Positions 225 through 58,720 of a stretch of 64,000 nucleotides of DNA are shown in pieces. Source of the DNA: Muscardinus avellanarius. Its lineage: Eukaryota; Chordata; Mammalia; Rodentia; Gliridae. Under the pieces are notes generated by a model. It did not search any database. It saw only the letters and a list, made by a program, of their open reading frames with translations, and had not been told where the DNA came from. Within the stretch, counting starts at the first letter, position 1. Each line of letters opens with the position of its first letter. The stretch is from the NCBI GenBank assembly GCA_963383645.1, contig OY726557.1, positions 124,412,223-124,476,222 on the forward strand, read 5' to 3'. Position numbers and translations under genes: made by a program.

Positions 225-2139
225 AGAGACTTCCAGGAAGATGGCGACTGAGGAAAGCAGCACATATTAGTCCTGCTGATACTCAGTCTCTATTGCCATA
301 AAAACAGCACCTTGACAAGAGAAAAAAAAAAACAGCATTAATTTGAACAGAGCACTGAAAATTGAATGACAGTGGAAACAAGGCTAGAAGGCAGAAAAGA
401 AGAGAGAACAGCAAAGTATCCCTCCCACCTTCAAAAGCTGCAGCTGTGGCTGTGGCTGCTGCAGCAGCACCATCTTGCCTTACTGCATTGGAACTGGCAG
501 AGACCCCCAGCAAAAAAACCAACAACTTAAAATAAGTGGCTGCAGCTCATCAGAATTGTAAGCAGCCAGCACATCCTGCTCCCACCAGACCTACAACAGT
601 GGCAGCCATGCTCACCACATCCTCCAGAGATCCAGTGTCTCAACAATAACAGATTCAAGATTGTGACTCTAAGTGAGACAGCAGAATTCTAGTGTGCTGA
701 GATCTATAACTCGACCACTGAAAAGAATGCATATCCATAAGAAAAGAAGCAGTAAAAAAAAAAAAGTCAACAACGACAACAGCAAAAATGAAAGTTGAAA
801 AGTACCAAAACTAGAACCAGAAAAAAGAGCAGAGACCTAAACATGCTCTGCAGGACCCACCTGGGAAACAGAGACCACAGACCAGCAGCCCAGCTTGGAC
901 AGGCTGCACGGGAGGAGCTGGCAGCCGCTGGCACTGTGGATTCCAGAGACATCCAGGAAGAAACTGTGGATCACTGTGAGGATGACAATGATAGACCATC
1001 AGTGAAAGCAGTCGCCATTTTGCCCAGGCACAGCAGGGAGGGACTCAAAAAATAGACAATTCAGCCGGACATTTTGGTGGTAGCTGAACTCACATCTTCC
1101 GGCAGCAGTCTGGAGCAGCATCCATCAACACAAGTTAATAAATCATTCCTGTGAGTAAAGCTGGCCGTGCCCCGCTACAAGGGCTTATGTGGCAAGTAAA
1201 TAGACACACAGGGGGCTTGAGGCTTTGGAAGCTTACTATCATATATATCTTAAATTTTAATTAATAAATAGCCCATAGAAACAGAGGGACTATAGCTCCC
1301 AGTTTGCGGAGCCAAGGTAGGAACTGTAGAGAATACTGTAGTATGCCCACTAGAGGTGCCAGGGAGAAATAGCACAACCTACTGAGTAAGCTCAGTAGTA
1401 AACTCACACCTGGTTGTGTCTGGGAGCAACAAAGCACCAGCATCTGAGGCCAGCAAGGGACCCTGGGACTGTCCTCCCAAGTCAGGGGTGGTATCCCTGG
1501 AGCCAAGGAACTGAGTCAAGCAAACTTGGAACTGAGCATTCTCTTTCTGCCAGACCTTGGGCCTTTGGTGGAGTGTGACAAAGGCACCATATCATTCAGA
1601 CTGCACCAAGATGCCAGGATACCACTTGACCACAGCCAAGCTTGAAATTCAATACTCTGACCACGAGCAGAGTTTGTACCTGGCATGCATGTAAGCTAGT
1701 GACTGAAAGTACCTCACGTGACCATAGCAAGCCAATATAGAGTGGTGTCCCAGGGATCATCAAAGCTAAGCTGGCCAGAACATAAGTTTAGAACATAGCA
1801 ATTGCTGGCGTTTTGGGGCCTAAGCTCACTGGTCACAGAGGCTAGAGGTCAGCACTCTGCAGTATTATGGGCTCACAATCGGCAGAGCATCAGTGGTCTC
1901 TGGAGTACACGAAGTTCCAACAAGAAAACTGGAGACCCTGGATAAAGCATCATAATATCTGGCCCTACAGACTTTGAACCACGGCAGCGCAGTGATCTGC
2001 AGTTAATATGAGACTACTGCTTACCTGCACTAAGAAATATATCTAGTTAAAGAAATTCTGGGGGAAAAACTCAAAACTTTGAATACTTAAGTCAAATTGG
2101 TAGGGGTGAATATTTACTCAAGCATATCGCTTATTTTTA
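225..2139 (+). mobile_element. Old L1/HAL1-like element, 5'UTR portion
   Basis: The left edge (near 228) carries a decayed form of the L1 5' end seen in the younger copies: a CTTCCaGGAAGATGGCGAC-type start. The roughly 1.9 kb that follows has no open frame and reads as a long L1 5'UTR. At 2139 it is interrupted by a younger minus-strand element, and it resumes at 4953 just before the ORF1 start. Divergence and scattered stops mark it as old. The 5' boundary is approximate because no target duplication was found. Confidence 0.7.
2123..2139. repeat. Target-site duplication, left copy (chimeric L1 copy A)
   Basis: The 17-bp sequence CATATCGCTTATTTTTA here is repeated exactly at 4953-4969, on either side of the minus-strand element. 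A perfect repeat shows one complete retrotransposition event into the older L1 and sets the element's borders at 2140-4952. Confidence 0.95.
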
Positions 2140-2199
2140 TTATTTTTTTATTTTTATTTTTTTCATTTGAAAGTCTTTTTTATTATTATTATTTTTTTT

Positions 2200-2346
2200 A
2201 TTGGTGCACTGTATTCATACATCATAGTGGGATACAAACTTTTGTAGACATACATGCACACATCGCCCAGTCAGCCCCCACCTGATCCCCACCCCATTCT
2301 CTCCCCATCCCTCCCTCCCATGCTTGGCTTAGTGGTTGACATCTAG
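2200..2346 (-). other. L1-type 3'UTR end of copy A
   Basis: On the minus strand this reads CAAGCATGGGAGGGAGGG, then a G-rich tract, then GTGCACCAATAAAA and an A-rich tail. The same 3' end occurs in other L1 copies at 21840-21970, 11590-11715 and 63166-63360. It is probably the part recognised by the L1 reverse transcriptase and shared by autonomous and non-autonomous members. Confidence 0.8.
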
Positions 2347-3232
2347 TATTATAGCAATTTATTCAAAATTAAAAATGATAATCTCACATAACAGTTTCAT
2401 TTGTCTGATACCAAGCTTTTGATGACTTAAAGATAACATTTCAATATTTTTTTTGCTTTCTTTCTTACCAGAGAATATTTTTTTCTATTTTTTAGGTGAA
2501 ACTATCATATATTTATATATTTATTTTTCAGAAAAAAAATCTATCCTAATATGGAATATGGACTCTAGATACCCAAAACGATCTTGAAAAAGAACAAAGC
2601 TAGAAGATATATATTTTCTGATTTCAAACCATATAAAGCTACAATAATTGAAACAGTGTAGTGCTATTCTAAAGGCAGATATATAAACCATTGGAGTTAA
2701 ATAAAAGCCTAGAGCTAAATTCTTCCCTATATTGTCAAGTTATTTTTGACAAGGTTTCCACGAACATTTGGTGGTAGAAATAATAATCTTTTAACTAAAT
2801 ATTGTTGAAACATAATAATTACATGGAAAAGAATAAAATTGGACCCTTACCTAATCCCATATACAAATATTAACTCAAAATAGATAAAAGACCTAAATAT
2901 AAATCTTAAGACTATAAACTTTTAGGAGAAAATCTGGGTCATAAAACCTCACAACATTGAAATTGGCAGTGATTTCTTGGATATTATTTCAATGGCACAG
3001 GCAACAGAAGAGTATACAAACTCCCTAAAAAATAAAAAAAAATTGTATATCCAAAGACAATGTAAACAGAGTTAACAGTTACTAATAGAATGGGATAAAA
3101 TATTTCCAAATGCTATATCTGAAGGTATATTAATATTCCAACTAGAAATCCTAAAAATTAACAACAATAAAGGCAAACAATACCATTTAGAGATAGGTAA
3201 AAGACTAACATAAATAATGAATCTCCACAGAT
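2347..3232 (+). mobile_element. Captured old-L1 ORF2 fragment, inverted inside copy A
   Basis: Read on the plus strand, this is the 3' third of an L1 ORF2 with many stops, including TAG where L1 normally has the TGG of its 'AWYW' tract. It is opposite to ORF1 and the 3'UTR of the element that contains it. The first roughly 150 bp (2347 to about 2525) do not look like L1 and match the flank of the 42-kb copy. The segment ends abruptly about 10 bp before the ORF1 stop codon. Confidence 0.85.
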
Positions 3233-3240
3233 AACTAATC

Positions 3241-4158
3241 TTAGTTGTCTGTTGGATGGAAAATCTTATTTCTCTGGTTCTGGTGTTTGTTACCTATTTC
3301 TTCTTTGTAGTTAATCTCTTTGAGTATTTTCTCTAGTGCTGGTTTTGAAGACATAAATTCCTTCAGTTTCTGTTTGTCATGGAAGCTTCTTATTTCTCCA
3401 TCTAATTTGATAGAAAGTTTTGCTGGGTAGGAAATTTTTGGCTGGAAGTTGTTTTCTTTCAGAGTTTGGAATATGTTACTCCAAGCCCTTCTGGCTCTCA
3501 TGACTTGATTTGGGAAGTCTGGAGTGATTCTAATTGGCTTGCCTCTGAATGTCACTTGGCCCTTTGTTTTCGTTGCCTTTAAGATTCTCTGCTTGGCTTC
3601 CACATTGGTCATTTTGACAATGATGTGGCGTGGGGATCCTCTTCTCCGATCCTGTCTAAAGGGAGTTCTATAAGTTTCCTGGACCTGTGTATCAACCTCT
3701 TGCTCTATGTTTGGAAAATTTTCTGCTATTACTTCCTTGAAGAGATTGTTGATCCCTTTGGTTTCACTTTCTTTTCCCTCCTCTATTCCAATTATTCTTA
3801 GGTTAGCTCTCTTAAAATGGGCCCATATTTCTTCAATATCAGATTCGTGCTGTCGGATATTTTTTCCTAGATTAGAAACTATGCGTTCATTTTTGGAATG
3901 ATCATCTTCTAAGAGCGAGATTCTGTTCTCCATGTGGTCTAATCGGTTGTTTGTGCTTTGAATTGAGGCCTTTACTTCATTAATTGCATCCTTTATCTCT
4001 TTTTGGCTCTCTCTGAGATCTTTTCGAAGCACCTCTATTATTTCTACAGTTATTTTCCTGATTTGATCTTCTAGAAATCTCTGATTTTCTGTTTTATGGG
4101 GTTCTGATGTTGTGGGGTTGTGGGCATTCATTGCTCCAGTATTATTCCTCTTTCCCAT
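3241..4158 (-). CDS. L1 ORF1 protein (intact, 305 aa), copy A
   Basis: L1 ORF1p is a trimeric RNA-binding chaperone that coats L1 RNA in the cytoplasm. The ATG at 4158 was chosen because it has a strong Kozak context (A at -3, G at +4) and because the sister copy starts at the same codon; upstream codons are open only to a GTG. Residues about 28-115 are heptad-like coiled coil rich in E, K, I and L. An RRM-like domain starts near 118 (LRIIGIEEG), and a C-terminal domain follows from about 214 (ITPDFPNQVMRARRAW at 211-226). No stop or frameshift is present. By hand alignment it differs from the copy at 52444 at about 17 of 305 residues. Human ORF1p is 338 aa, so this is a somewhat shorter type. 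It may be translated if transcribed, but no ORF2 follows. Confidence 0.92.
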   Translation of the reverse strand: MGKRNNTGAMNAHNPTTSEPHKTENQRFLEDQIRKITVEIIEVLRKDLRESQKEIKDAINEVKASIQSTNNRLDHMENRISLLEDDHSKNERIVSNLGKNIRQHESDIEEIWAHFKRANLRIIGIEEGKESETKGINNLFKEVIAENFPNIEQEVDTQVQETYRTPFRQDRRRGSPRHIIVKMTNVEAKQRILKATKTKGQVTFRGKPIRITPDFPNQVMRARRAWSNIFQTLKENNFQPKISYPAKLSIKLDGEIRSFHDKQKLKEFMSSKPALEKILKEINYKEEIGNKHQNQRNKIFHPTDN

Positions 4159-4929
4159 GATTTTGGAAGTTTGTGCCTTCTCTGGGTTCTTCCCTTGGGT
4201 CACTATGACTTCACTTAAGGTGTTCTGGATCTCGAGTCAGTAGTATCTCAGACCCCACTACTCCTTTACTGGGTTGTATCACAGAGTCTCCGACCCAGAG
4301 AGTCGATAGAGGCTGCTTTAGACTGTGGGGGATGCCAGGTTGGGTGTTCTCCTATGGTGTGATATCTCTGCCACCGCCCCTCCCCCACTGGGTCAAGTCC
4401 CAGGGAGTACAGTACTGGGATTTCTCCTCTGTGGCCCGCAATTTGACTCACTGTTCTTGAGTATGCAGATGTAGCTGTACTGGACTTGGTGAATTTGCTG
4501 CTGCTGCCGCCAGTGGCAATATGGCGCCGCTGCTATGCCCTTGGCCGTGAGGCTGGCATATTTCTTCTTGGTTTTGAGTTTCACTCTGAATCCCTGCAGC
4601 GTGTGCTGAGCTCAGCCACTGAGAGCTTTAGATGCTCCCTGCGCCAAGATATCCCACCTGGCTGTTCTGCAGCGGCTTACCTCGGCTTGCTGTAGCCGTC
4701 CGGTGAACTCGCCGCTGCTGCCGGCAGTATGGCGCTGCTGCCGCGTCCTCGGGCGTGAGGCCGGTGTATCTCCTCTGTGGCTCTGAGCTCTGTTCTCAGT
4801 CTGCTTTCTCTCTGGAGCCTGGTGATTTTTTTGTTTCTCTGGTGATGGTGTTTTCTGGCTATGAAAGGCACTGATTTTGTGGTAATGAAGATTGGTTGTT
4901 AGCGGGGCTCTTAAGCCCCGCTTTTCTCG
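4159..4929 (-). other. L1 5'UTR of copy A
   Basis: GC-rich leader with CpG and CTGCTGCC-type tracts, aligning throughout with 51675-52443. Several open frames cross it in both copies, but they lack a shared ATG and are interrupted at different places, so it is treated as untranslated leader. Confidence 0.8.
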
Positions 4930-4952
4930 GTCGCCATCTTCCCGGAAGTCCT
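4930..4952 (-). promoter_or_regulatory. L1 internal promoter start: ETS and YY1 motifs
   Basis: On the minus strand the element begins GACTTCCGGGAAGATGGCGA. It contains an ETS site (CCGGAAGT on the other strand, 4942-4949) directly followed by a YY1 site (AAGATGGCG, 4932-4940). YY1 near +10 fixes transcription starts in human L1, and ETS plus YY1 is typical of TATA-less promoters. The same pair heads the copy at 51652. Confidence 0.7.
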
Positions 4953-4969
4953 CATATCGCTTATTTTTA
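4953..4969. repeat. Target-site duplication, right copy (chimeric L1 copy A)
   Basis: Exact repeat of 2123-2139. The old L1 sequence continues immediately after it. Confidence 0.95.
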
Positions 4970-12205: not shown

Positions 12206-13132
12206 CTACCTTCCCCCAACCACTTTTCTCAGTGCATTCTTCACGTCCTTGTTCCTCAGGCTGTAGATCAGGGGATTGAGCATGGGGATCACTGTGGTAT
12301 AGAACACAGAGGACACCTTCTCCTGTTCCATAGTATTGCTGGATGGGGGCTTGAAATACATGAACGTTATAGACCCAAAAAAGATGCCCACGGCCATGAG
12401 ATGGGAGCTGCAAGTGCTGAAGGCCTTGGAACGTCCCTCAGTGGTGCGGATGCGGAGGATACTAGAGAGGATGAAAGTGTAAGAGATGAGGACAGCCAGT
12501 GTGGGCGCCAGGGTATTCACTCCTCCAATAATAAATAGCAGGATTTCGTTGATGTGGGTGCTGGAGCAAGACAGGGTCAGCAAGGGCAGAATATCACAAA
12601 AGTAATGACTGACGACATGAGATCTACAGAAGGACAGCATTGACATGCGGGTAGTGTGGACCGTGGCCCCAAAAAACCCCAGAGTGTACACCACAACCAT
12701 CATTATATAGCAGACCCGGTGGGACATGACAATATTGTAGAGCAGCGGGCTGCAGATAGCAACATAGCGGTCATATGCCATGGCTGTCAGAAGGTAGCCT
12801 TCTGCAATTACGAAAATAAGGAAGAAGTAGAGCTGAGTCATGCACTCCAGAAAGGAGATGATATTCTTCTCCGAAATGAAGTTCACCAACATCTTTGGGG
12901 TGATGACAGAGGAATAGCAGAGGTCAATGAAGGACAAATGACTAAGAAAATAATACATGGGAGAGTGGAGTTGAGAACTGATCCCAATTAAAAGGATCAT
13001 TCCCAGGTTCCCCACCACCGTGGCCACATATATGCTCAGAAACAGGAGGAAGAGTGGCAGTTGAAGCTCTGGTCGTTGTGTTAGTCCTTGAAGAATAAAA
13101 TAGGTCACTGAAGAATGATTTGAAGTACTCAT
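12206..13132 (-). CDS. Olfactory receptor, OR8D-like, intact (308 aa)
   Basis: Seven-helix class A GPCR of olfactory cilia, coupling odorant binding to G(olf). One uninterrupted exon. Visible landmarks are the N-glycosylation site NHS at 5-7, GN in TM1 (41-42), PMYYFL (58-63), [10 protein letters not shown] at the end of TM3 (118-127), SY in TM5 (217-218), KAFSTCSSH at TM6 (236-244) and PMLNPLIY in TM7 (283-290). C97 and C179 can form the usual disulfide. [16 protein letters not shown] and the C-terminal [12 protein letters not shown] point to subfamily 8D. The length is typical of the family. The ATG sits 17 bases after a good splice acceptor (CTTATTTATTCCTCTAG), matching an upstream non-coding exon. 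Orthology to a single human OR8D gene is not claimed. Confidence 0.96.
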
Positions 13133-20572: not shown

Positions 20573-20583
20573 AGAAAACTGTA
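20573..20583. repeat. Target-site duplication, left (twin-primed L1)
   Basis: AGAAAACTGTA, repeated exactly at 21996-22006. Confidence 0.8.
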
Positions 20584-21995
20584 TATCAACCTCTTTCTCT
20601 ATATTTGGAAAAATTCCTACTATTACTTTGAAAAGATTGTTGATCCCTTTGGTTTCACCTTCTTTTCCCTCCTCTGTACCAAATATTCTTAGGTTAGTTC
20701 TTTTAAGATGGGCCCATATTTCTTCAATATCCAATTCCTGCTGCCAAATTGTTTTTCCTAAGTTACATACTATGTGTTCATTTTTTTGTAGTGATCATAT
20801 TCTAGGAGAAAGATTCTATTTTCCATGTGGTCTAATTGATTGTTTATAGTTTAAATTGATGCCTTCACTTCAATGATTATATCCTTTATTTCTTTCAGAC
20901 TATCTCTAAATTTTTTTTGGAAGTCCTGTATTATTTCTACAGTTACATTCCTGATTTGACCTTCTGGAGATCTCTGCACTTCTGTGTTATCAGGTTCTGT
21001 TATTGTGGGGTTGTGGGAGCTCATTGCTTCCTTGTTATTTCTCCTTCTCATGATTTCAGAAGTTTGTATCTGTTGTTTTTGATAAATTTATCTCAGTCTC
21101 CAGGTGTCAGCTGGCATATCTAAGGGCAAGTTGTATTGTATTCAACAGTGAAATTTGAGTGAGGAGGGAAGTGAAGTCATAAGTGGAAGAATAGGGTAAA
21201 GCCTCAGATATGGTCAAATATAATAAGAGCATGAGTTTGGTAAGGTAGTATATACTAGCAATTACAGATAGTAAAAATGTAGTAGTATTCTAGTAATCAA
21301 TGTAGAGTTTCTGGTAAAGTGATATGAAGTTGATTTAATACAGGACAAGGGAAAGAGAAAAAGAAGAAAAAAGATAGAAAAGGAAGAGAGAGAAGAGAGG
21401 CAAGAAGCTTGGGAGAGGGTTTGGGAAGAGGAAAAAATAGGCATACATACTCATACCCCCCAAAAAGAACAAAAAAAACAAAACAACCATTAACAAATTA
21501 ATGAAACTTTACAAATAAGATTTCCATCAACAGATGAATGGATTATAAAACTGTGGGATATGTACACAATGGAATTTTACTAAGCCATAAAGAAAAACAC
21601 AATTACATCATTTGCAGGGAAATGGGTAGAACTGGAGGATATTATGCTAAGTGAGATTATCAGTCACAAAAAATAAGAAATCAGATGCTTTCTCTAATAT
21701 GTGAAAGCTAGAGAGAAATGGGTAACAGGAAACACTCTAGATGAAGAAGGATATTCTATAGATGAGCAAATAAGGTAACCTAAGGGAATGGAAGAGGAAA
21801 ACTTTCTAAAGCACATGATGTACTTAAACAAACATATCAAAGTCAACCACTAAGCCAAGCATGGGAAGGAGGGAATGGTGTGGGAATTGGGTAAGGGCTA
21901 ATTGGGTGATTGTGCATGTATGTCTCTACCATCTTTTATCCCCTTATATGACTACAATACACCAATAAAAATTAAAATAAATAAATATTTTAAAA
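20584..21995 (+). mobile_element. L1 insertion with inverted 5' part (twin priming)
   Basis: The left part (20584 to about 21480) is an ORF1 N-terminal half and 5'UTR in minus orientation; decayed ORF1 pieces lie at 20734-20585 and 21051-20851. The right part (about 21490 to 21980) is an L1 3' end in plus orientation, from ATGAATGGATTATAAAACTG through the common G-rich 3'UTR to ACACCAATAAAA. An 11-bp target duplication encloses both, so this is one event. Inverted 5' segment plus sense 3' segment is the classical twin-priming outcome. ORF2 is entirely missing, which fits a half-L1-type source or a large deletion at the inversion joint. Confidence 0.75.
20585..21051 (-). pseudogene. Decayed L1 ORF1, N-terminal half
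   Basis: Two open pieces correspond to residues about 1-66 and 106-160 of the intact ORF1 copies (DIEEIWAHLKRTNLRI at the start of the second). A frameshift separates them. The C-terminal half was never copied or was lost. Confidence 0.75.
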
Positions 21996-27257: not shown

Positions 27258-28185
27258 TCAGGAAAATATTTTCCTACTGAAGCTTTTCTTCAGGGCAACC
27301 TTAACCTCCTTATTCCAGAAACTGTAGATCAGAGGATTGAGCATGGGTACCACAATGGTACAGAACACCGTGGACACCTTTCCCTGGTCCATGGACAAAA
27401 CTGAAAAAGGATGGAGGTACATGAATTCCCCAGACCCAAAGAAGACAGAGACAATAATCATATGAGAGCTACAGGTGCCAAAGGCCTTGGATCTTCCTTC
27501 AGTGGAAGGAATTTGAAAGATGCTGGCAAGGATGAACGTGTAAAAGACCACAATGGCGAGGCTGGGCACACCAACATCAAAGCCCACGACAACAAACACC
27601 ACCAGTTCATTGACTCGAGTGCTTGTGCAGGAGAGCTCCAGAAGGGGAAGGGTGTCACACATGTAGTGGTTGATGGTTCTGGCCTTGCAGAAGGTCAGCC
27701 TCAGCATGCTTCCTGTGTGAGCCCAGGCACCAGCAAATGCTCCCACATAGACCATCCCAGCCAGCAGAGAGCAGACCCAAGGGGACATAGAAACTGTGTA
27801 CAGAAGGGACTTGCAGACGGCCACATAGCGGTCATAGGCCATCACTGTCAACACATAGCACTCAGCACTGACAAAGAAGCAGTAGAAAAAGAGATGAGCC
27901 TGCATAGGAGATGGTGTTCACCTTGGACACAAAGTTTATTAACAGCTTTGGGGTAATGGCAGAAGAGTAACAGAGATCAATAAAGGACAAATTAAAGAGG
28001 AAGTAGTACATGGGAGTGTGGAGGTGAGAATTCAGTCCAATTAGAGTGACCAGACCCAAATTCCCTGCCACAGTGACCAGGTAGATTCCTAGGAATAGGA
28101 AGAAGAGTGGGAATAGGAGCCCTGAATATTCTGTTAAACCCACCAGAATAAATTCATTGATGAAAGAACTGTTTTCAATATCCAT
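27258..28185 (-). pseudogene. Olfactory receptor pseudogene, OR8B/8G-like, frameshifted
   Basis: The N-terminal part (28185-27862) reads from an ATG through TM1 ([10 protein letters not shown]), PMYYFLFN and TM2 to about residue 95, then runs into a wrong frame. The C-terminal part (about 27895-27258) reads in another frame from the start of TM3 ([10 protein letters not shown]) through HYMCDTLPLLELSC, KAFGTCSSH and PMLNPLIYS. At the break (about 27900) the conserved GCMTQ stretch after TM2 is shortened. Compared with paralogues, about 8 nt are missing, which alone explains the frameshift. TM7 also has SFWNK instead of SLRNK. Subfamily 8B or 8G is suggested by the C-terminal half. The full span is of family length, so this is a recent loss. 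Confidence 0.93.
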
Positions 28186-28200
28186 TCTCTTCCAGCAGAA

Positions 28201-28222
28201 TCTGAAAGACAGGAAAGTATAG
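28201..28222 (-). promoter_or_regulatory. Splice acceptor of the OR pseudogene coding exon
   Basis: Minus strand: a pyrimidine tract ending CCTGTCTTTCAG, 16 nt before the ATG. Confidence 0.6.
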
Positions 28223-38995: not shown

Positions 38996-39928
38996 TCAAC
39001 AGTTTCTCCTAGTCATGGTTTTTCTCAGTGCAAGTTTAACATCTTTGTTCCTCAAGCTGTAGATTAAGGGGTTCATTAAAGGAACTGTATTGGTATAGAA
39101 GACAGAAGAGATTTTCCCTTCATCCATAGACCCAGCAGAAGATGGCTTAAGATACATGAATGCACCTGATCAAAAGAACAAAGAAACAGCAATTAGGTGG
39201 GAGCTGCAGGTGCTGAAGGCTTTGGACCTGCCCTCAGTAGACCTTATTGGAAGGATACTAGAAAGGATAAAGCCATATGAGATAAAGATAGTGAAACTGG
39301 GCACAATGATGTTGATGCCTACCACAATGAGAACTTCTAGTTCATTGACATAGGTGCTGGAGCAGGAGAGCTGCATCACAGGGAGAATGTCACAGAAATA
39401 GTGGTTGATGGTGTTGGCATTACAGAAGGTCAGTCTCAGCATGCATACAGTGTGGGCCATGGCACCAGAAAATGCCATCAGGTATGAACCAAGCATAAGG
39501 CTGGAACACACTCTAGGGGACATGGCTGTGTTATACAAAAGTGGATGGCAGATGGCCACATAGCGATCATAGGCCATGGATGTCAGCACATAGCACTCAG
39601 AAATGGAAAAAAAACTAAAAAAGTAAAGCTGAGTCATGCACCCCTTATAAGAGATAGTATTCTTTTTATAAATGAAGTTCATCAGCATTTTGGGTGTGAA
39701 CACAGAAGAGTAACAGAGGTCAATGAAGGACAAGTTAAAGAGGAAAAAGTACATGGGGGTGTGAAGGTGTGAATTCAGTCCAATTAGAATTAGCAAACTC
39801 AAATTACCCAGCACAGTGACTATATATATCACAAGAAACAGACAAAAAAGGGGGAGTTGGAGATGTGGTTGGTCTGTCAGTCCCACCAGAATGAATTCAG
39901 TCACAAAAGAGTCATTTCCAGGAGCCAT
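38996..39928 (-). pseudogene. Olfactory receptor pseudogene, OR8B-like, one nonsense codon
   Basis: A 310-codon frame of full family length, collinear with the intact gene at 57788-58720, differing at about 19 of the first 252 residues. Codon 253 is TGA where the paralogue has GGA (Gly of the TM6 FFGSG motif); the change is at 39170-39172. After it the same frame stays open to a TGA at 38996-38998, including [16 protein letters not shown]. All other landmarks are normal: NDS glycosylation site at 5-7, [10 protein letters not shown], and [10 protein letters not shown] stop in TM6 removes TM7, so the product would be non-functional. With one disabling change and an otherwise clean frame, the loss is recent and may be polymorphic. 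Confidence 0.95.
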
Positions 39929-41100: not shown

Positions 41101-42041
41101 GAGACAGAACAAAAATAAACTCTCGTTTTTCAGTCATCAAGATAGTAGAACATGATGTCCTATGTCCTCCTGCCTTTAGGAGCACAGCAATTCAACAACA
41201 TTCATGGGCAAGTTACATTTGTGAGAATTCCAAAATGTACTTATGGTGCTGCTACACCCTAGTCTACTTATAAAAGCAGGCATATTAAATAAGGTAGGAA
41301 AAATACCAGTTATATCCTTAACATAATCCCTATTCCTGGCACTACTCCACAGAATTGGGACACAAACTTCCTTCTGGGAAGGAAATGAGTTCTACTATGT
41401 ATCCAGTGTTTGCCTTTCTTTCATATCCCTCAAACTTTGTCATAGTTGGAAATTTCTGAATAGATGAAGTACATATAAATTCCATGTAAGAATGCAATGA
41501 ACAATTATGCCTGTGGACATGAGGACATATAATGTGTCCTGACAAATCCTACAATGGGATAAAAGATGTATTATTGAACAGAAGTGCAGTATCTGGGGTT
41601 TACCCTATTTTGAGTATTGATTATTCTATCATTGACCCACTTATAGGAGAACTGTTGTCTATGACAGTCTGCTAGATCATAAACTCTCTTCGTGTTTTAG
41701 AATATAACTTGTGGCAAATGAGAGAGGGACATTGGGTCTTCAGGGAAAAACCTTTTTAAAAATACTAGTTGCTATAAAATAAGAATTATCTTTTGTGCCA
41801 AAACCACTACACTGTGAAAAAGAAGTTTATGTTAACTATCTTCATGAATTAAGAAATATAGTAATATAATCAAAATAGGATCCTATCACAAAATGGAAAT
41901 TCACTTAAAAATTAATGTTTCAGTAGTAAGCTTGGTAAGCAGCTCCCTCTGATGGAAACTTTTGACTTAGACAAGATTTGCCTTAATTAATAGATAAAAA
42001 AGCAGGAATATAACAAATAAAAGATGTTATTTATTTATTAA
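41101..42041. other. Intergenic, nothing recognised
   Basis: No gene or known repeat. Open frames at 40914-41273 and 41342-41545 lack recognisable domains. Confidence 0.4.
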
Positions 42042-42914
42042 TATTATAGCAATTTATCCAAAATAACAATGATAATCTCATTTGTCTGATATCAAACTTT
42101 TGATCACTTTGAGATAACATTTCAATATTTCTTTCTTGTTGTCTTTCTTACCAGAGGATATTTTTTTCTTTTTTTTTTTCTTAAGGTAAAACTCTCATAC
42201 TTTTTTTCAGAAAAAAATCTATCCTAACATGAAATATGAACTCTAAATACACAAAACAATCTCAGAAAAGAACACAGCTAGAAGATGTACATTTTCTGAT
42301 TTCAATCCTTATAAAACTACAATAATCGAAACAGTGTAGTACTGCTATAAAGGCAGATATATAAACCAGTGGAGTAAAATGAAGAGCCTAGAAATATATT
42401 CTTCCATATATGGTCAAGTTATTTTTACAAGGTTTCCAAGAACATTTGGTGAAGGAAATAATAATCTTTTCACTAAATATTGTTGAAAAATAATAATTAC
42501 AAGAAAAATAATAAAATTAGACCCTTACCTAACACCATATACAAATATTAACTCAAAATAGATAAAAGACCTAAATGTAAATCTTAAGACTATAAACTTT
42601 TAGAAGAAAACCTGGGTCATAAAACTTCACAACATTGAAATTGGCAGTGATTTCTTGGATAAGATTCCAAAGGCACAGGCAACAAAAGAATAAACAAACT
42701 TCATAAAAAATTAAAAAATTGTACATTCAAAGACAATGTAAACACAGTTAAAAGTTAAAAGTTACTGATAGAATGGGATAAAATATTTCCAAATGCTGTA
42801 TCTGAAGGTATATTAATATTCCAAATAGAACTCCTAAAAATTAACAACCATAAAAGCAAACAATACAATTTAGAAATAGGTAAAAGACTAAAATAGATAA
42901 TGAATCTCCAAAGA
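42042..42914 (+). repeat. Stand-alone copy of the segment captured by the chimeric L1s
   Basis: Collinear with 2347-3232 (plus) and 54249-53370 (minus) at roughly 90 percent by eye. The first about 165 bp (to about 42207) do not look like L1. The rest is the 3' part of a decayed L1 ORF2, with TAG in place of a conserved TGG, as in the captured copies. No ORF1 or L1 3'UTR flanks it. L1 ORF2 sequence continues naturally beyond 42914, where the captured copies stop. It therefore looks like the ancestral genomic context. Unlike both captured copies, it lacks 13 bp near 42076. Confidence 0.8.
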
Positions 42915-43060
42915 TTTTTATATGAACAATAAACACATGAATATCACTCATCATTTGTCATACTATAACTGATCATTAAGGAAATACAAATAAAAACTAT
43001 AGTGAAATACTACTTCACATTTGTTAGGATGGCTACTTAACATAAATTACCTTGCTCCAG
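42208..43060 (+). mobile_element. Old L1 ORF2 relic, 5'-truncated
   Basis: Starts near GAAAAAAATCTATCCTAACA and continues past 42914 with AATATCACTCATCATTTGTC and TTCACATTTGTTAGGATGGC, typical L1 ORF2 C-terminal sequence. Heavily mutated. Confidence 0.8.
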
Positions 43061-43257
43061 CCCTGTTAATTTTTTTTAGTGAAATTGAGATCCGCAAAAT
43101 ATATGAATAATCATGGGAGAAAAAAGATAGTTATCTTGTACTCTCATTTCCCTTTCTCACACTATGAGAAGCACTAGAATTATAAAGGCTGTGCTTATCT
43201 AGCATGAGTGAGGTCCTAGGCTCAATCCATAATACAAGCACACGAGTTCATGCATGT

Positions 43258-51639: not shown

Positions 51640-51651
51640 AAAGTGACCTCG
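51640..51651. repeat. Target-site duplication, left (chimeric L1 copy B)
   Basis: AAAGTGACCTCG; the right copy at 54475-54486 is AAAGCGACCTCG. The one difference is a C/T at a CpG. Confidence 0.85.
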
Positions 51652-51674
51652 GACTTCCGGGAAGATGGCGACCG
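51652..51674 (+). promoter_or_regulatory. L1 internal promoter start: ETS and YY1 motifs
   Basis: ACTTCCGG (51653-51660, ETS site on the other strand) abuts AAGATGGCG (51662-51670, YY1). Identical to copy A. Confidence 0.7.
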
Positions 51675-52443
51675 AGAAAAGCGGGGCTTAAGAGCCCCGC
51701 TAACAACAAATCTCTATTACCACAAAATCAGCGCCTTTCATAGCCAGAAAACACCATCACCATTGAAACAAAAAATCACCAGGCTCCAGAGAGAAAGCGG
51801 ACTGAGAACAGAGCCACAGAGAAGATACACCGGCCTCGCGCCCGAGGACGCTGCAGACGTGGCAGCAGCGCCATACTGCCTGCGGCACCGGCGAATTCAC
51901 GGGACGGCTACAGCAAGCCGAGGTGAGCCACTGCGGAACAGCCAGGTGGGATTTCTCCACGCAGAGAGCGTCTAAAGCTCCCAGTGGCTGAGCTCAGCAC
52001 ACGCTGCAGGGATTCAGAGTCAAAATCAAAACCAAGAAGAAAACGCCAGCCCCATAGCCGAGGGTGTAGCAGCGGCACCATATTGCCACCGGCGGCAAAA
52101 GCAGAGAATTCAGCGAGGCCAGTACAGCTACATCTGCGCACTCGAGAACAGTGAGTCAAATTGCGGGCCACAGAGGAGAAATCCCAGTACTGTACTCCCT
52201 GGGACTTGACCCAGTGGAGGAGGGGCGGTGGCAGAGATATCACACCATAGGAGAACGTGCAACCTGGCACCCCCCACAGTCTAAAGCAGCCTCTATCGAC
52301 TCTCTGGGTCGGAGACTCTGTGATACAACCCAGCAAAGGAGTAGTGGGGTCACAGATACTACTGACTCGAGATCCAGAACACCTTAAGTGAAGTCATAGT
52401 GACTCAAGGGAAGAACCCAGAGAAGGCATAAACATCCGAAATC
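51675..52443 (+). other. L1 5'UTR of copy B
   Basis: CpG-containing leader collinear with copy A. The long frame that crosses its start opens with GTG in flanking DNA and shifts at 51770, so it is not called as a gene. Confidence 0.8.
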
Positions 52444-53361
52444 ATGGGAAAGAGGAATAATACTGGAGCAATGAATGCACACAACCCCACAACATCAGAA
52501 CCCGATAAAACAGAAAATCAGAGATTTCTAGAAGATCAAATCAGGAAAATAACTGTAGAAATAATAGAGGTGCTTCGAAAAGAACTCAGAGAGAGCCAAA
52601 AAGAGATAAAGGATCCAATTAATGAAGTAAAGGCCTCAATTCAAAGCACAAACAACCGATTAGAACACATGGAGAACCGAATCTCACTATTAGAAGATGA
52701 GCAATCCAAAAATGAACGCATAGTTTCTAATCTAGGAAAAAATATCCGACAGCAGGAATCTGACATTGAAGAAATATGGGCCCATTTTAAGAGAGCTAAC
52801 CTAAGAATAATTGGAATCGAGGAGGGAAAAGAAAGTGAAACCAAAGGGATCAACAATCTCTTCAAGGAAGTAATAGCAGAAAATTTTCCAGACATAGAGC
52901 AAGAGGTTGATACACAGGTCCAGGAAACTTATAGAACTCCCTTTAGACAGGATCGGAGAAGAGGATCTCCACGCCACATAATTGTCAAAATGACCAATGT
53001 GGAAGCCAAGCAGAGAATCTTAAAGGCAACAAAAGCAAAGGGCCAAGTGACATTCAGAGGCAAGCCAATTAGAATCACTCCAGACTTCCCAAACCAAGTT
53101 ATGAGAGCCAGAAGGGCTTGGAGTAACATATTCCCAATTCTGAAAGAAAACATCTTCCAGCCAAAAATTTCCTACCCAGCAAAACTTTCTATCAAATTAG
53201 ATGGAGAAATAAGAAGCTTCCATGACAAACAGAAACTGAAGGAATTTATGTTTTCAAAACCAGCACTAGAGAAAATACTCAAAGAGATTAACTACAAAGA
53301 AGAAATAGGTAACACATACCAGAACCAGAGAAACAAGAGTTTCCATCCAACAGTCAACTAA
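52444..53361 (+). CDS. L1 ORF1 protein (intact, 305 aa), copy B
   Basis: Same start (ATCATGG, strong Kozak), length and domain order as copy A: coiled coil about 28-115, RRM-like domain from about 118, C-terminal domain from about 214 with PNQVMRARRAW. There is an in-frame TAA a few codons before the ATG, which supports the ATG as the true start. About 17 residues differ from copy A. No ORF2 follows; an inverted old L1 segment begins nine bases after the stop codon. The protein may bind its own RNA, and reverse transcriptase must come from elsewhere. Confidence 0.92.
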   Translation: MGKRNNTGAMNAHNPTTSEPDKTENQRFLEDQIRKITVEIIEVLRKELRESQKEIKDPINEVKASIQSTNNRLEHMENRISLLEDEQSKNERIVSNLGKNIRQQESDIEEIWAHFKRANLRIIGIEEGKESETKGINNLFKEVIAENFPDIEQEVDTQVQETYRTPFRQDRRRGSPRHIIVKMTNVEAKQRILKATKAKGQVTFRGKPIRITPDFPNQVMRARRAWSNIFPILKENIFQPKISYPAKLSIKLDGEIRSFHDKQKLKEFMFSKPALEKILKEINYKEEIGNTYQNQRNKSFHPTVN

Positions 53362-53369
53362 GATTGGTT

Positions 53370-54249
53370 ATCTGTGGAGATTCATTATTTATGTTAGTCT
53401 TTTACCTATCTCTAAATGGTATTGTTTGTCTTTATTGTTGTTAATTTTTAGGATTTCTAGTTGGAATATTAATATACCGTCAGATATAGCATTTGGAAAT
53501 ATTTTATCCCATTCTATTTGTAATTGTTAACTCTGTTTACATTCTCTTTGGATATACAATTTTTTTTAGGGAGTTTGTATACTCTTCTGTTGCCTGTGCC
53601 ATTGAAATCATAACCAAGAAATCACTGCCAATTTCAATGTTGTGAGGTTTAATGACCCAGATTTTCTCCTAAAAGTTTATAGTCTTAAGATTTATATATA
53701 GGTCTTTTATCTATTTTGAGTTAATATTTGTATATGGGATTAGGTAAGGGTCCAATTTTATTCTTTTCCATGTAATTATTCTTTTTTAACAATATTTAGT
53801 TAAAAGATTAATATTTCCACCACCAAATGTTCGTGGAAACCTTGTCAAAAATAACTTGACAATATAGGGAAGAATTTAGCTCTAGGCTTTTATTTAACTC
53901 CAATGGTTTATATATCTGCCTTTAGAATAGTACTACACTGTTTCAATTATTGTAGCTTTATATGGTTTGAAATCAGAAAATATATATCTTCTATCTTTGT
54001 TCTTTTTCAAGATCGTTTTGGGTACCTAGTGTCCATATTCCATATTAGGATAGATTTTTTTCTGAAAAATAAATATATAAATATATGATAGTTTCACCTA
54101 AAAAATAGAAAAAAAAATATTCTCTGGTAAGAAAGAAAGCAAAAAGAAATATTGAAATGTCATCTTTAAGTCATCAAAAGCTTGGTATCAGACAAATGAA
54201 ACTGTTATGTGAGATTACCATTTTTAATTTTAGATAAATTGCCATAATA
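53370..54249 (-). mobile_element. Captured old-L1 ORF2 fragment, inverted inside copy B
   Basis: Complement of the segment at 2347-3232, with both junctions at the same bases as copy A. It shares with copy A, against the 42-kb locus, a 13-bp stretch (CACATAACAGTTT region) and several substitutions, so A and B descend from one captured version. Confidence 0.85.
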
Positions 54250-54400
54250 CTAGATGTCAACTACTAAGCCAAGCATGGGAGGGAGGGATAGGGAGAGAAT
54301 GGGGTGGGGATTGGGTGGGGGCTGACTGGGAAAAGTGTGCAAGTATGTCTACAAAAGTTTGTATCCCACTATGATGTATGAATACAGTGCACCAATAAAA

Positions 54401-54474
54401 AAAAAAGTAAAAAAAAAAAACAAATATGTATAAAATAAATTTTCACAAAGTTTCCAAGTTGAAAAAAAAAAAAA
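54401..54474 (+). other. Probable 3' transduction and second poly(A) tail
   Basis: After the first A-run comes CAAATATGTATAAAATAAAT and about 20 more bases, containing AATAAA (54434-54439). A second A-run follows (54462-54477), then the target duplication. Readthrough to a downstream polyadenylation signal would produce exactly this. Confidence 0.7.
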
Positions 54475-54486
54475 AAAGCGACCTCG
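54475..54486. repeat. Target-site duplication, right (chimeric L1 copy B)
   Basis: AAAGCGACCTCG, partner of 51640-51651. Confidence 0.85.
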
Positions 54487-57787: not shown

Positions 57788-58720
57788 TCAAAACTTTCTC
57801 CTGCTCAGGGTTTTTCTCAGAGCAACTTTAACATCCTTATTCCTCAAGCTATAGATTAAGGGGTTCATCATGGGAACCACATTGGTATAAAAGACAGAAG
57901 AAGTTTTTCCCTCATCCATAGACCCAGCAGAAGATGGCTTAAGATACATGAATGCACCTGATCCAAAGAACAAAGAAACAGCAATTAGGTGGGAGCTGCA
58001 GGTGCTGAAGGCTTTGGACCTGCCCTCAGTAGACCTTATTTGAAGGATACTAGAAAGGATAAAGCCATATGAGATAAAGATAGTGAAACTGGGCACAATG
58101 ATGTTGATGCCTGCCACAATACGGACCTCTACTTCATTGACATAGGTGCTGGAGCAGGAGAGCTGCATCACAGGGAGAATGTCACAGAAATAGTGGTTGA
58201 TGGTGTTGGCATCACAGAAGGTCAGTCTCAGCATGCATCCAGTGTGGGCCATGGCACCAGAAAATGCCATCAGATATGAACCAAGCATAAGGCTGGAACA
58301 CACTCTAGGGGACATGGCTGTGTTATACAAAAGTGGATGGCAGATGGCCACATAGCGATCGTATGCCATAGACATCAACACATAGCACTCAGAGATAACG
58401 AAAAAACAGTAAAAGTAGAGTTGAGTCATGCACCCCATATAAGAGATGGTATTCTTTTTATAAATGAAGTTCATCAGCATTTTGGGTGTGAACACAGAAG
58501 AGTAACAGAGGTCAATGAAGGACAAGTTAAAGAGGAAAAAGTACATGGGGGTGTGAAGGTGTGAATTCAGTCCAATTAGAATTAGCAAACTCAAATTTCC
58601 CAGTACAGTGACCATATACATCACTAGAAACAGGAAAAGTAGGAGAAGTTGGAGATCTGGTTGGTTTGTGAGACCTGCCAGAATGAATTCAGTCACAAAA
58701 GAGTCATTTCCAGGAGCCAT
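57788..58720 (-). CDS. Olfactory receptor, OR8B-like, intact (310 aa)
   Basis: Single-exon seven-helix odorant receptor. Landmarks: NDS glycosylation site at 5-7, GN in TM1 (41-42), TPMYFFLFN (57-65), [10 protein letters not shown] (118-127), SY in TM5 (217-218), KAFSTCSSH (236-244), [14 protein letters not shown] around 251-264, and [16 protein letters not shown] (283-298). C97 and C179 are present for the disulfide. The length is standard. INIIVPSFTIFISYGFI and the C-terminus favour subfamily 8B; 8G is the main alternative. It is the working partner of the nonsense-broken copy 18.8 kb to the left, from which it differs at about 8 percent of residues. Confidence 0.96.
   Translation of the reverse strand: MAPGNDSFVTEFILAGLTNQPDLQLLLLFLFLVMYMVTVLGNLSLLILIGLNSHLHTPMYFFLFNLSFIDLCYSSVFTPKMLMNFIYKKNTISYMGCMTQLYFYCFFVISECYVLMSMAYDRYVAICHPLLYNTAMSPRVCSSLMLGSYLMAFSGAMAHTGCMLRLTFCDANTINHYFCDILPVMQLSCSSTYVNEVEVRIVAGINIIVPSFTIFISYGFILSSILQIRSTEGRSKAFSTCSSHLIAVSLFFGSGAFMYLKPSSAGSMDEGKTSSVFYTNVVPMMNPLIYSLRNKDVKVALRKTLSRRKF

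What the first reader, a model, noticed from the sequence alone, without database searches (positions are those of the whole stretch)
2140..4952. A chimeric, ORF1-only L1 family with an inverted old-L1 filler, seen at two independent loci
Copies at 2140-4952 (minus) and 51652-54474 (plus) share every internal junction: ORF1 stop, then within about 10 bp an inverted 3' ORF2 segment from a much older L1 plus non-L1 flank, then a modern L1 3'UTR. Each has its own target duplication (17 bp perfect; 12 bp with one CpG change) and unrelated flanks, so one master with this structure made both. HAL1 (half-L1) elements with ORF1 only are known, but an antisense captured block as the middle module is not something I know described. 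It is a candidate new non-autonomous LINE family.
Basis: partly seen in the sequence, partly recalled or inferred. Interest (0 to 1): 0.9.

Follow-up and report, generated by a model that had tools for sequence, protein, structure and literature searches.

The report
Half-LINE whose tail joined LINE-1
The window holds two copies of a mobile element that carries only the first gene of LINE-1 plus a backward piece of an older LINE-1; at least 39 more copies lie elsewhere in the genome, some nearly identical and so likely very recent, and the same backward piece also sits in the tail of intact LINE-1s, which likely took it from this half-element.

Summary
Copies at 2140-4951 (-) and 51651-54474 (+) share their internal junctions and have separate target duplications. 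It is a family: 40 of 40 scored genome matches span junction 1; 39 of 39 other copies fetched also span junction 2, 30 of them full length. Near-identical copies on different chromosomes, one carrying another's 3' flank, show recent copying. ORF1 is intact in 17 of 32 full copies and evolved under constraint (omega about 0.35).

Two corrections. First, this is a second generation: an older set (one truncated copy at 42031-43064) keeps about 200 nt of ORF2 before a longer filler, and three of its copies resume in the ORF2 end after it, so the filler replaced the ORF2 interior. Second, the block is not confined to ORF1-only elements: L1s with a 1278-aa ORF2 carry it as 3'UTR. Their ORF1 matches classic L1 (97.7%, against 92.3% to the half-element), but their last 3' segment matches the half-element (90.1%, against 79.1%). 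Tail transfer from half-L1 to L1 is the likeliest history; its direction is inferred. Dfam and Repbase could not be checked.

The parts
51651..54474 (+). Copy B, full-length second-generation half-L1 (HAL-b)
51651..52443 (+). 5'UTR of copy B
   Evidence: same 5' start in most full copies
52444..53361 (+). ORF1 of copy B, 305 aa (PF02994, PF17490)
53358..53376 (+). Junction 1: ORF1 stop, then a 9-nt remnant (ATTGGTTAT) of the upstream part of the older, longer block, then the block
53370..54251 (+). Middle block: antisense old-L1 ORF2 segment, then roughly 200-240 bp without an L1 match
54252..54400 (+). 3' end with G-rich tract, entered at junction 2
51640..51650 (+). 5' target duplication of copy B
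   Evidence: read
54475..54485 (+). 3' target duplication of copy B, one C/T difference
   Evidence: read
2140..4951 (-). Copy A, full-length second-generation half-L1 (HAL-b)
3241..4158 (-). ORF1 of copy A, 305 aa
2344..3232 (-). Middle block of copy A
4953..4969 (-). 5' target duplication of copy A, 17 bp
   Evidence: read
2123..2139 (-). 3' target duplication of copy A, identical 17 bp
   Evidence: read
42031..43064 (-). Copy C, 5'-truncated copy of the older generation (HAL-a); holds the longer block and ends in an A-rich tract
20579..21970 (.). Older L1 in pieces: ORF1 piece on -, ORF2 end and classic 3' end on +, with no block between ORF2 end and 3' end

Best explanation
The two copies belong to a half-L1 family (ORF1 only, here HAL-b) that is likely copied in trans by the ORF2 protein of autonomous L1, and whose tail was likely taken over by an autonomous L1 lineage. 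Inferred history: in an L1, the interior of ORF2 was replaced by an antisense piece of an old L1, giving an ORF1-only element (HAL-a) that spread. Two internal deletions then brought the block up to the ORF1 stop (HAL-b), and HAL-b went on copying until very recently. During target-primed reverse transcription, template switching between HAL-b-lineage RNA and L1 RNA likely joined an L1 body to the block plus 3' end; that lineage (L1mod) now includes many intact L1s. Shown: family status, junctions, target duplications, recent copies, constraint on ORF1, presence of the block in intact L1s, and the mosaic ancestry of L1mod. Inferred: trans-mobilisation, template switching, and the direction of transfer.
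For: Family: 40 of 40 scored matches span junction 1 (524 first-look candidates). 39 of 39 fetched other copies also span junction 2 and 30 of 39 are full length. TPRT marks: duplication score 14 or more in 18 of 30 full copies (three of them A/T-rich simple sequence) against 1 of 90 mismatched control pairs; 5' inversions in L050 and L056. Recent: L043, L048 and L053 differ by 0.15-0.18% and L028/L031 by 0.22%, at different loci; L048 carries L053's 3' flank before its own A-tail and duplication. ORF1: intact in 17 of 32; HAL-b private changes 15 N: 15 S, omega about 0.35, p 0.004. Older stage: 14 of 14 HAL-a loci checked run ORF1, intergenic, about 200 nt of ORF2, longer block; L060, L064 and L067 resume at the ORF2 end; junction 1 of HAL-b keeps a 9-nt remnant of the HAL-a block. 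Transfer: block in the 3'UTR of 5 of 9 L1 ends sampled, all five with a 1278-aa ORF2; 40 of 40 scored matches to one L1mod junction are identical over 200 bp. ORF1 puts L1mod with classic L1 (97.7 v 92.3%), the 3' end with HAL-b (90.1 v 79.1%; trees). L077 has L1 ORF2, L1 3'UTR to the G-tract, then HAL-b ORF1 end, junction 1, block, 3' end and A-tail, with no L1 3'UTR after it.
Against: L1mod itself holds no trace of junction 1. The block tree joins L077 to HAL-b rather than L1mod (split support 99; 8 of 17 HAL-b-private sites shared, 2 of 23 L1mod-private), so L077 is a separate event or a sibling, not the direct ancestor of L1mod. The block tree has no outgroup, so its root is assumed. No expression or retrotransposition was measured. 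The shared-versus-singleton test loses significance without CpG contexts (p 0.029 to 0.23).
Confidence: 0.75

Rival explanations
1. Reverse direction: an autonomous L1 first captured the antisense block in its 3'UTR, and both ORF1-only forms are later ORF2-deletion derivatives of that L1.
For: ORF1 of HAL-a, HAL-b and L1 are nearly equidistant (6.4-6.9% between majorities), so each HAL could be a separate L1 offshoot. The block tree is unrooted.
Against: In three HAL-a copies the block lies between ORF2 start and ORF2 end, not in the 3'UTR. HAL-a and HAL-b carry block sequence that the sampled L1mod ends lack. HAL-b's junction 1 keeps a piece of the HAL-a block. Classic L1, nearly identical to L1mod in ORF1, lacks the block and has an unrelated-looking 3' end version.
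Confidence: 0.15
2. Plain half-L1: an ordinary HAL1-type family with an incidental filler, and its resemblance to L1mod 3'UTRs reflects chance nesting or assembly of neighbouring insertions.
For: ORF1-only L1 derivatives arose several times in mammals (PMC5753468, passages).
Against: L1mod ends are uniform: 40 of 40 scored matches are identical over ORF2 end, 3'UTR and block; 18 pairs picked show a fixed 2251-2253 nt distance from RT domain to junction.
Confidence: 0.05
3. L077 is a nested insertion of a 5'-truncated HAL-b into an old L1 3'UTR and says nothing about transfer.
For: Single locus with a broken ORF2 (461-aa frame).
Against: After the HAL-b A-tail no remaining L1 3'UTR follows, as nesting would require; a later deletion could still explain that.
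Confidence: 0.3

Closest known systems
HAL1 (half-L1)
   Same: L1-derived, encodes ORF1p only, amplified as a family, likely copied in trans. PMC5753468 (passages) says HAL1 encodes only ORF1p and arose independently several times.
   Different: Here an antisense old-L1 block replaced the ORF2 interior, at least two structural generations exist, and the tail is shared with intact autonomous L1s. The primary HAL1 paper (Bao and Jurka 2010) was not held, so whether any listed HAL1 has a comparable filler was not checked.
Recombinant mouse L1 families (L1MdTf, L1MdGf; 3' exchange between the L1MdA_IV ancestor and L1MdF_II)
   Same: Mosaic L1s formed by exchange between families, including near the ORF2-3'UTR junction (PMC3600994, passages).
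   Different: Those exchanges are between L1 families; here the donor of the tail is likely an ORF1-only, non-autonomous element.
UTR replacement in L1 evolution
   Same: 5' and 3'UTRs of L1 have been replaced by unrelated sequence (PMC5753468, passages); 5'UTR recruitment in perissodactyls (PMC5872511, passages).
   Different: Here a likely proximate source of the new 3'UTR can be named, namely the half-L1 lineage.
SVA and LAVA composite elements (recalled; only an abstract start seen)
   Same: Composite non-autonomous elements mobilised by L1.
   Different: They do not encode ORF1p (recalled); HAL-b does.

Membership tests
HAL1-type half-L1 | L1-type ORF1 (PF02994, PF17490) behind an L1-type 5'UTR | tested here: met
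HAL1-type half-L1 | No ORF2 | tested here: met
   No ORF2 between the ORF1 stop and the 3' end in A or B
HAL1-type half-L1 | Amplified as an interspersed family with L1-like target duplications | tested here: met
HAL1-type half-L1 | ORF1 maintained by selection | tested here: met
   Stem omega about 0.35, p 0.004; weaker within-family test
HAL1-type half-L1 | Mobilised in trans by L1 ORF2p | not testable with these tools
   Inferred from TPRT marks and intact L1s in the genome
HAL1-type half-L1 | Descent from a named Repbase HAL1 family | not testable with these tools
   Repbase and Dfam not on hand; primary paper not held
Recombinant L1 family (for L1mod) | Different segments have different nearest relatives | tested here: met
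   ORF1 against 3' end
Recombinant L1 family (for L1mod) | Recombinant is itself multi-copy with intact ORF2 | tested here: met
   40 of 40 scored matches identical; 14 of the 18 pairs picked have a 1278-aa ORF2

The most novel reading that the evidence does not exclude
A non-autonomous half-L1 served as the incubator of a new 3'UTR: it assembled an antisense old-L1 block and a new 3' end, spread, and then handed that tail to its autonomous helper, whose block-bearing form became a main intact L1 of this genome. The parasite rewired the host element rather than the reverse.
Probability: 0.55. Interest if true: 0.78.

Novelty: new variant of a known kind. Interest (0 to 1): 0.66.

Why it matters
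L1 families are known to swap promoters and exchange segments, but the source of a new 3'UTR is seldom visible. Here the likely donor, an older stage, a deleted younger stage, a chimeric locus (L077) and the recipient sit in one genome. If the direction holds, non-autonomous elements are not only a drain on L1 but a store of parts from which L1 can renew itself. ORF1-only elements that are this young also give a natural test of how far ORF1p in cis helps an RNA that must borrow ORF2p.

Tried and rejected
Copy C as the donor locus of the block: rejected, because its upstream part recurs at 95-96% with one shared boundary in HAL-a copies, so C is a truncated HAL-a copy. Origin of junction 1 by splicing: rejected by eye, because no GT-AG fits; junction 1 is explained by two deletions relative to HAL-a, the second about 54 nt. 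The true donor of the block was not found. Copy number was not measured: pattern searches did not complete, and 524, 1772 and 1077 are unconfirmed first-look candidates. Which HAL-a form is ancestral (ORF2 end retained, A-rich ending, SINE-bearing, or block cut short) is not settled. The host species was not established: nearest named ORF1 proteins are from Sciurus and Marmota at 51-54%, the best match being an unnamed contig at 73%. Notebook entry 1 wrongly lists L045 as a 5' inversion; only L050 and L056 are. Papers: eight answered searches listed nothing whose title or abstract start describes this element or such a transfer; three papers were seen as passages only.

Full report
The two copies. 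A (2140-4951, -) and B (51651-54474, +) align end to end at 94.3% over 2811 columns. Each has a 5'UTR, an open 305-aa ORF1 (Pfam PF02994 and PF17490 on B), a block that begins within 10 bp of the ORF1 stop, and a short 3' end with a G-rich tract and A-tail. The block runs antisense to L1 ORF2 at 58-60% identity to a local autonomous L1, so it comes from a much older L1; its last 200-240 bp found no L1 match. The flanking duplications, read directly, are 17 bp perfect for A and about 11 bp with one change for B.

It is a family. A 201-bp query over junction 1 gave 40 scored matches, all covering the whole query at 98-100%, from 524 first-look candidates. One is B; I fetched the other 39. All 39 run without a break through junction 2 as well, which the query did not contain, and 30 of 39 are full length. 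Target duplications scoring 14 or more were found in 18 of the 30 (three are A/T-rich simple sequence), against 1 of 90 mismatched control pairs; several full copies gave no clear duplication. L050 and L056 show 5' inversion, as in twin priming. The sample is biased to copies close to B.

It was active very recently. L043, L048 and L053, on three contigs, differ by 0.15-0.18%, and L028/L031 by 0.22%. L048 carries 26 nt of L053's 3' flank before its own A-tail and its own duplication, and L043 a shorter piece, so L053 is the likely parent of both.

ORF1 mattered on the way. It is intact in 17 of 32 full copies, A and B included. Changes private to HAL-b split 15 nonsynonymous to 15 synonymous, omega about 0.35, p 0.004; HAL-a 18:13, p 0.038; L1 14:13, p 0.011. 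Part of the HAL-b stem may predate the loss of ORF2. Within HAL-b, shared variants are less nonsynonymous than singletons (44:28 against 128:41, p 0.029), but not significantly once CpG contexts are removed (27:15 against 82:28, p 0.23).

An older generation exists. Copy C in the window (42031-43064) and 16 fetched loci hold a longer block. In 14 of 14 checked, the order is ORF1 end, intergenic, about 200 nt of ORF2 (start of the endonuclease), block. In L060, L064 and L067 the block is followed by the ORF2 end and, in L060 and L064, classic 3'UTR, so it stands in place of roughly 3.2 kb of ORF2. Other older copies end in an A-rich tract, or carry SINE sequence before an L1 3'UTR (L017, L018), or have the block cut short (L061, L066). 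At junction 1 HAL-b keeps nine bases of the upstream part of the HAL-a block and lacks the next 54 or so, so HAL-b is a deletion product of a HAL-a-like element.

The block is also in autonomous L1. A search for the RT domain gave 150 scored places of 26,731 candidates, many with a 1278-aa ORF2. I read nine of their 3' ends. Five (L075, L076, L080, L081, L082), all with a 1278-aa frame, carry the block 20-60 nt after the ORF2 stop, followed by junction 2 and the HAL-b-like 3' end where the fetched stretch reaches it (L075 stops short of it). Three (L078, L079, L083; frames 749, 1270 and 638 aa) have a classic short 3'UTR without the block. One, L077 (frame 461 aa), is chimeric. A 200-bp query over the L1mod junction gave 40 of 40 scored matches at 100% from 1077 candidates. 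Eighteen of these, picked by eye, lie at a fixed distance from a scored RT domain, and 14 of the 18 have a 1278-aa frame. So the block-bearing L1 is young and includes many intact copies.

Mosaic ancestry. In ORF1, L1mod is 97.7% identical to classic L1 and 92.3% to HAL-b. In the 3' end it is 79.1% to classic L1 and 90.1% to HAL-b; in the block it is 92.5% to HAL-b and 87.9% to HAL-a (ORF1 of two L1mod and three classic, 3' end of four L1mod and three classic). Trees agree: the L1 clade has support 100 in ORF1, while in the 3' end L1mod separates from classic L1. L077 goes further: after an L1 ORF2 end and L1 3'UTR up to the G-tract it continues as the last 35 nt of HAL-b ORF1, junction 1, block, 3' end and A-tail, with no L1 3'UTR after it. 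Material that passed through a HAL-b element is thus joined to an L1 body at least once.

What does not fit neatly. L1mod has no trace of junction 1. L077 shares 8 of 17 HAL-b-private block sites but only 2 of 23 L1mod-private ones, so it is not the direct ancestor of L1mod; two separate joins, or a donor not sampled, are needed. The block tree has no outgroup. The search for more L077-like copies did not complete.

Verdict. The fuller picture is a half-L1 lineage with at least two generations whose tail is now also the 3'UTR of intact L1s. Half-L1s (PMC5753468, passages) and exchange between L1 families, including near the ORF2-3'UTR junction (PMC3600994, passages), are known. I found no description of a tail passing from a half-L1 to L1 in the listings, but that library leaves out most subscription papers, and Repbase and Dfam were not available.

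Noticed in passing
window 12206-13132 (-), 39170-39928 (-), 57788-58720 (-), also 27263-28216: Intronless 7TM-like genes related to each other (66-89% identity), recognised from memory as olfactory receptors; the half-L1 copies lie in such a cluster. No domain search was run.
   Followed up: no
L053, L048, L043: Parent and offspring copies traced by 3' transduction.
   Followed up: partly
L077 with L084 (C23): Chimeric L1 whose 3'UTR runs from its G-rich tract into the ORF1 end of a half-L1.
   Followed up: partly
L017, L018: Older half-L1 copies with SINE sequence between the block and an L1 3'UTR, shared over about 330 bp at 81%: possibly a further composite subfamily.
   Followed up: no
L061, L066: Older half-L1 copies with the block cut at the same point and joined to an L1 3' end: possibly another subfamily.
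   Followed up: no
5'UTR of HAL-b copies: The 5'UTR varies about twice as much between copies as ORF1 or the block, also outside CpG contexts; unexplained.
   Followed up: no
L074 (C8): The L1mod 5'UTR begins with GC-rich repeat-like sequence that is absent from HAL-b.
   Followed up: no
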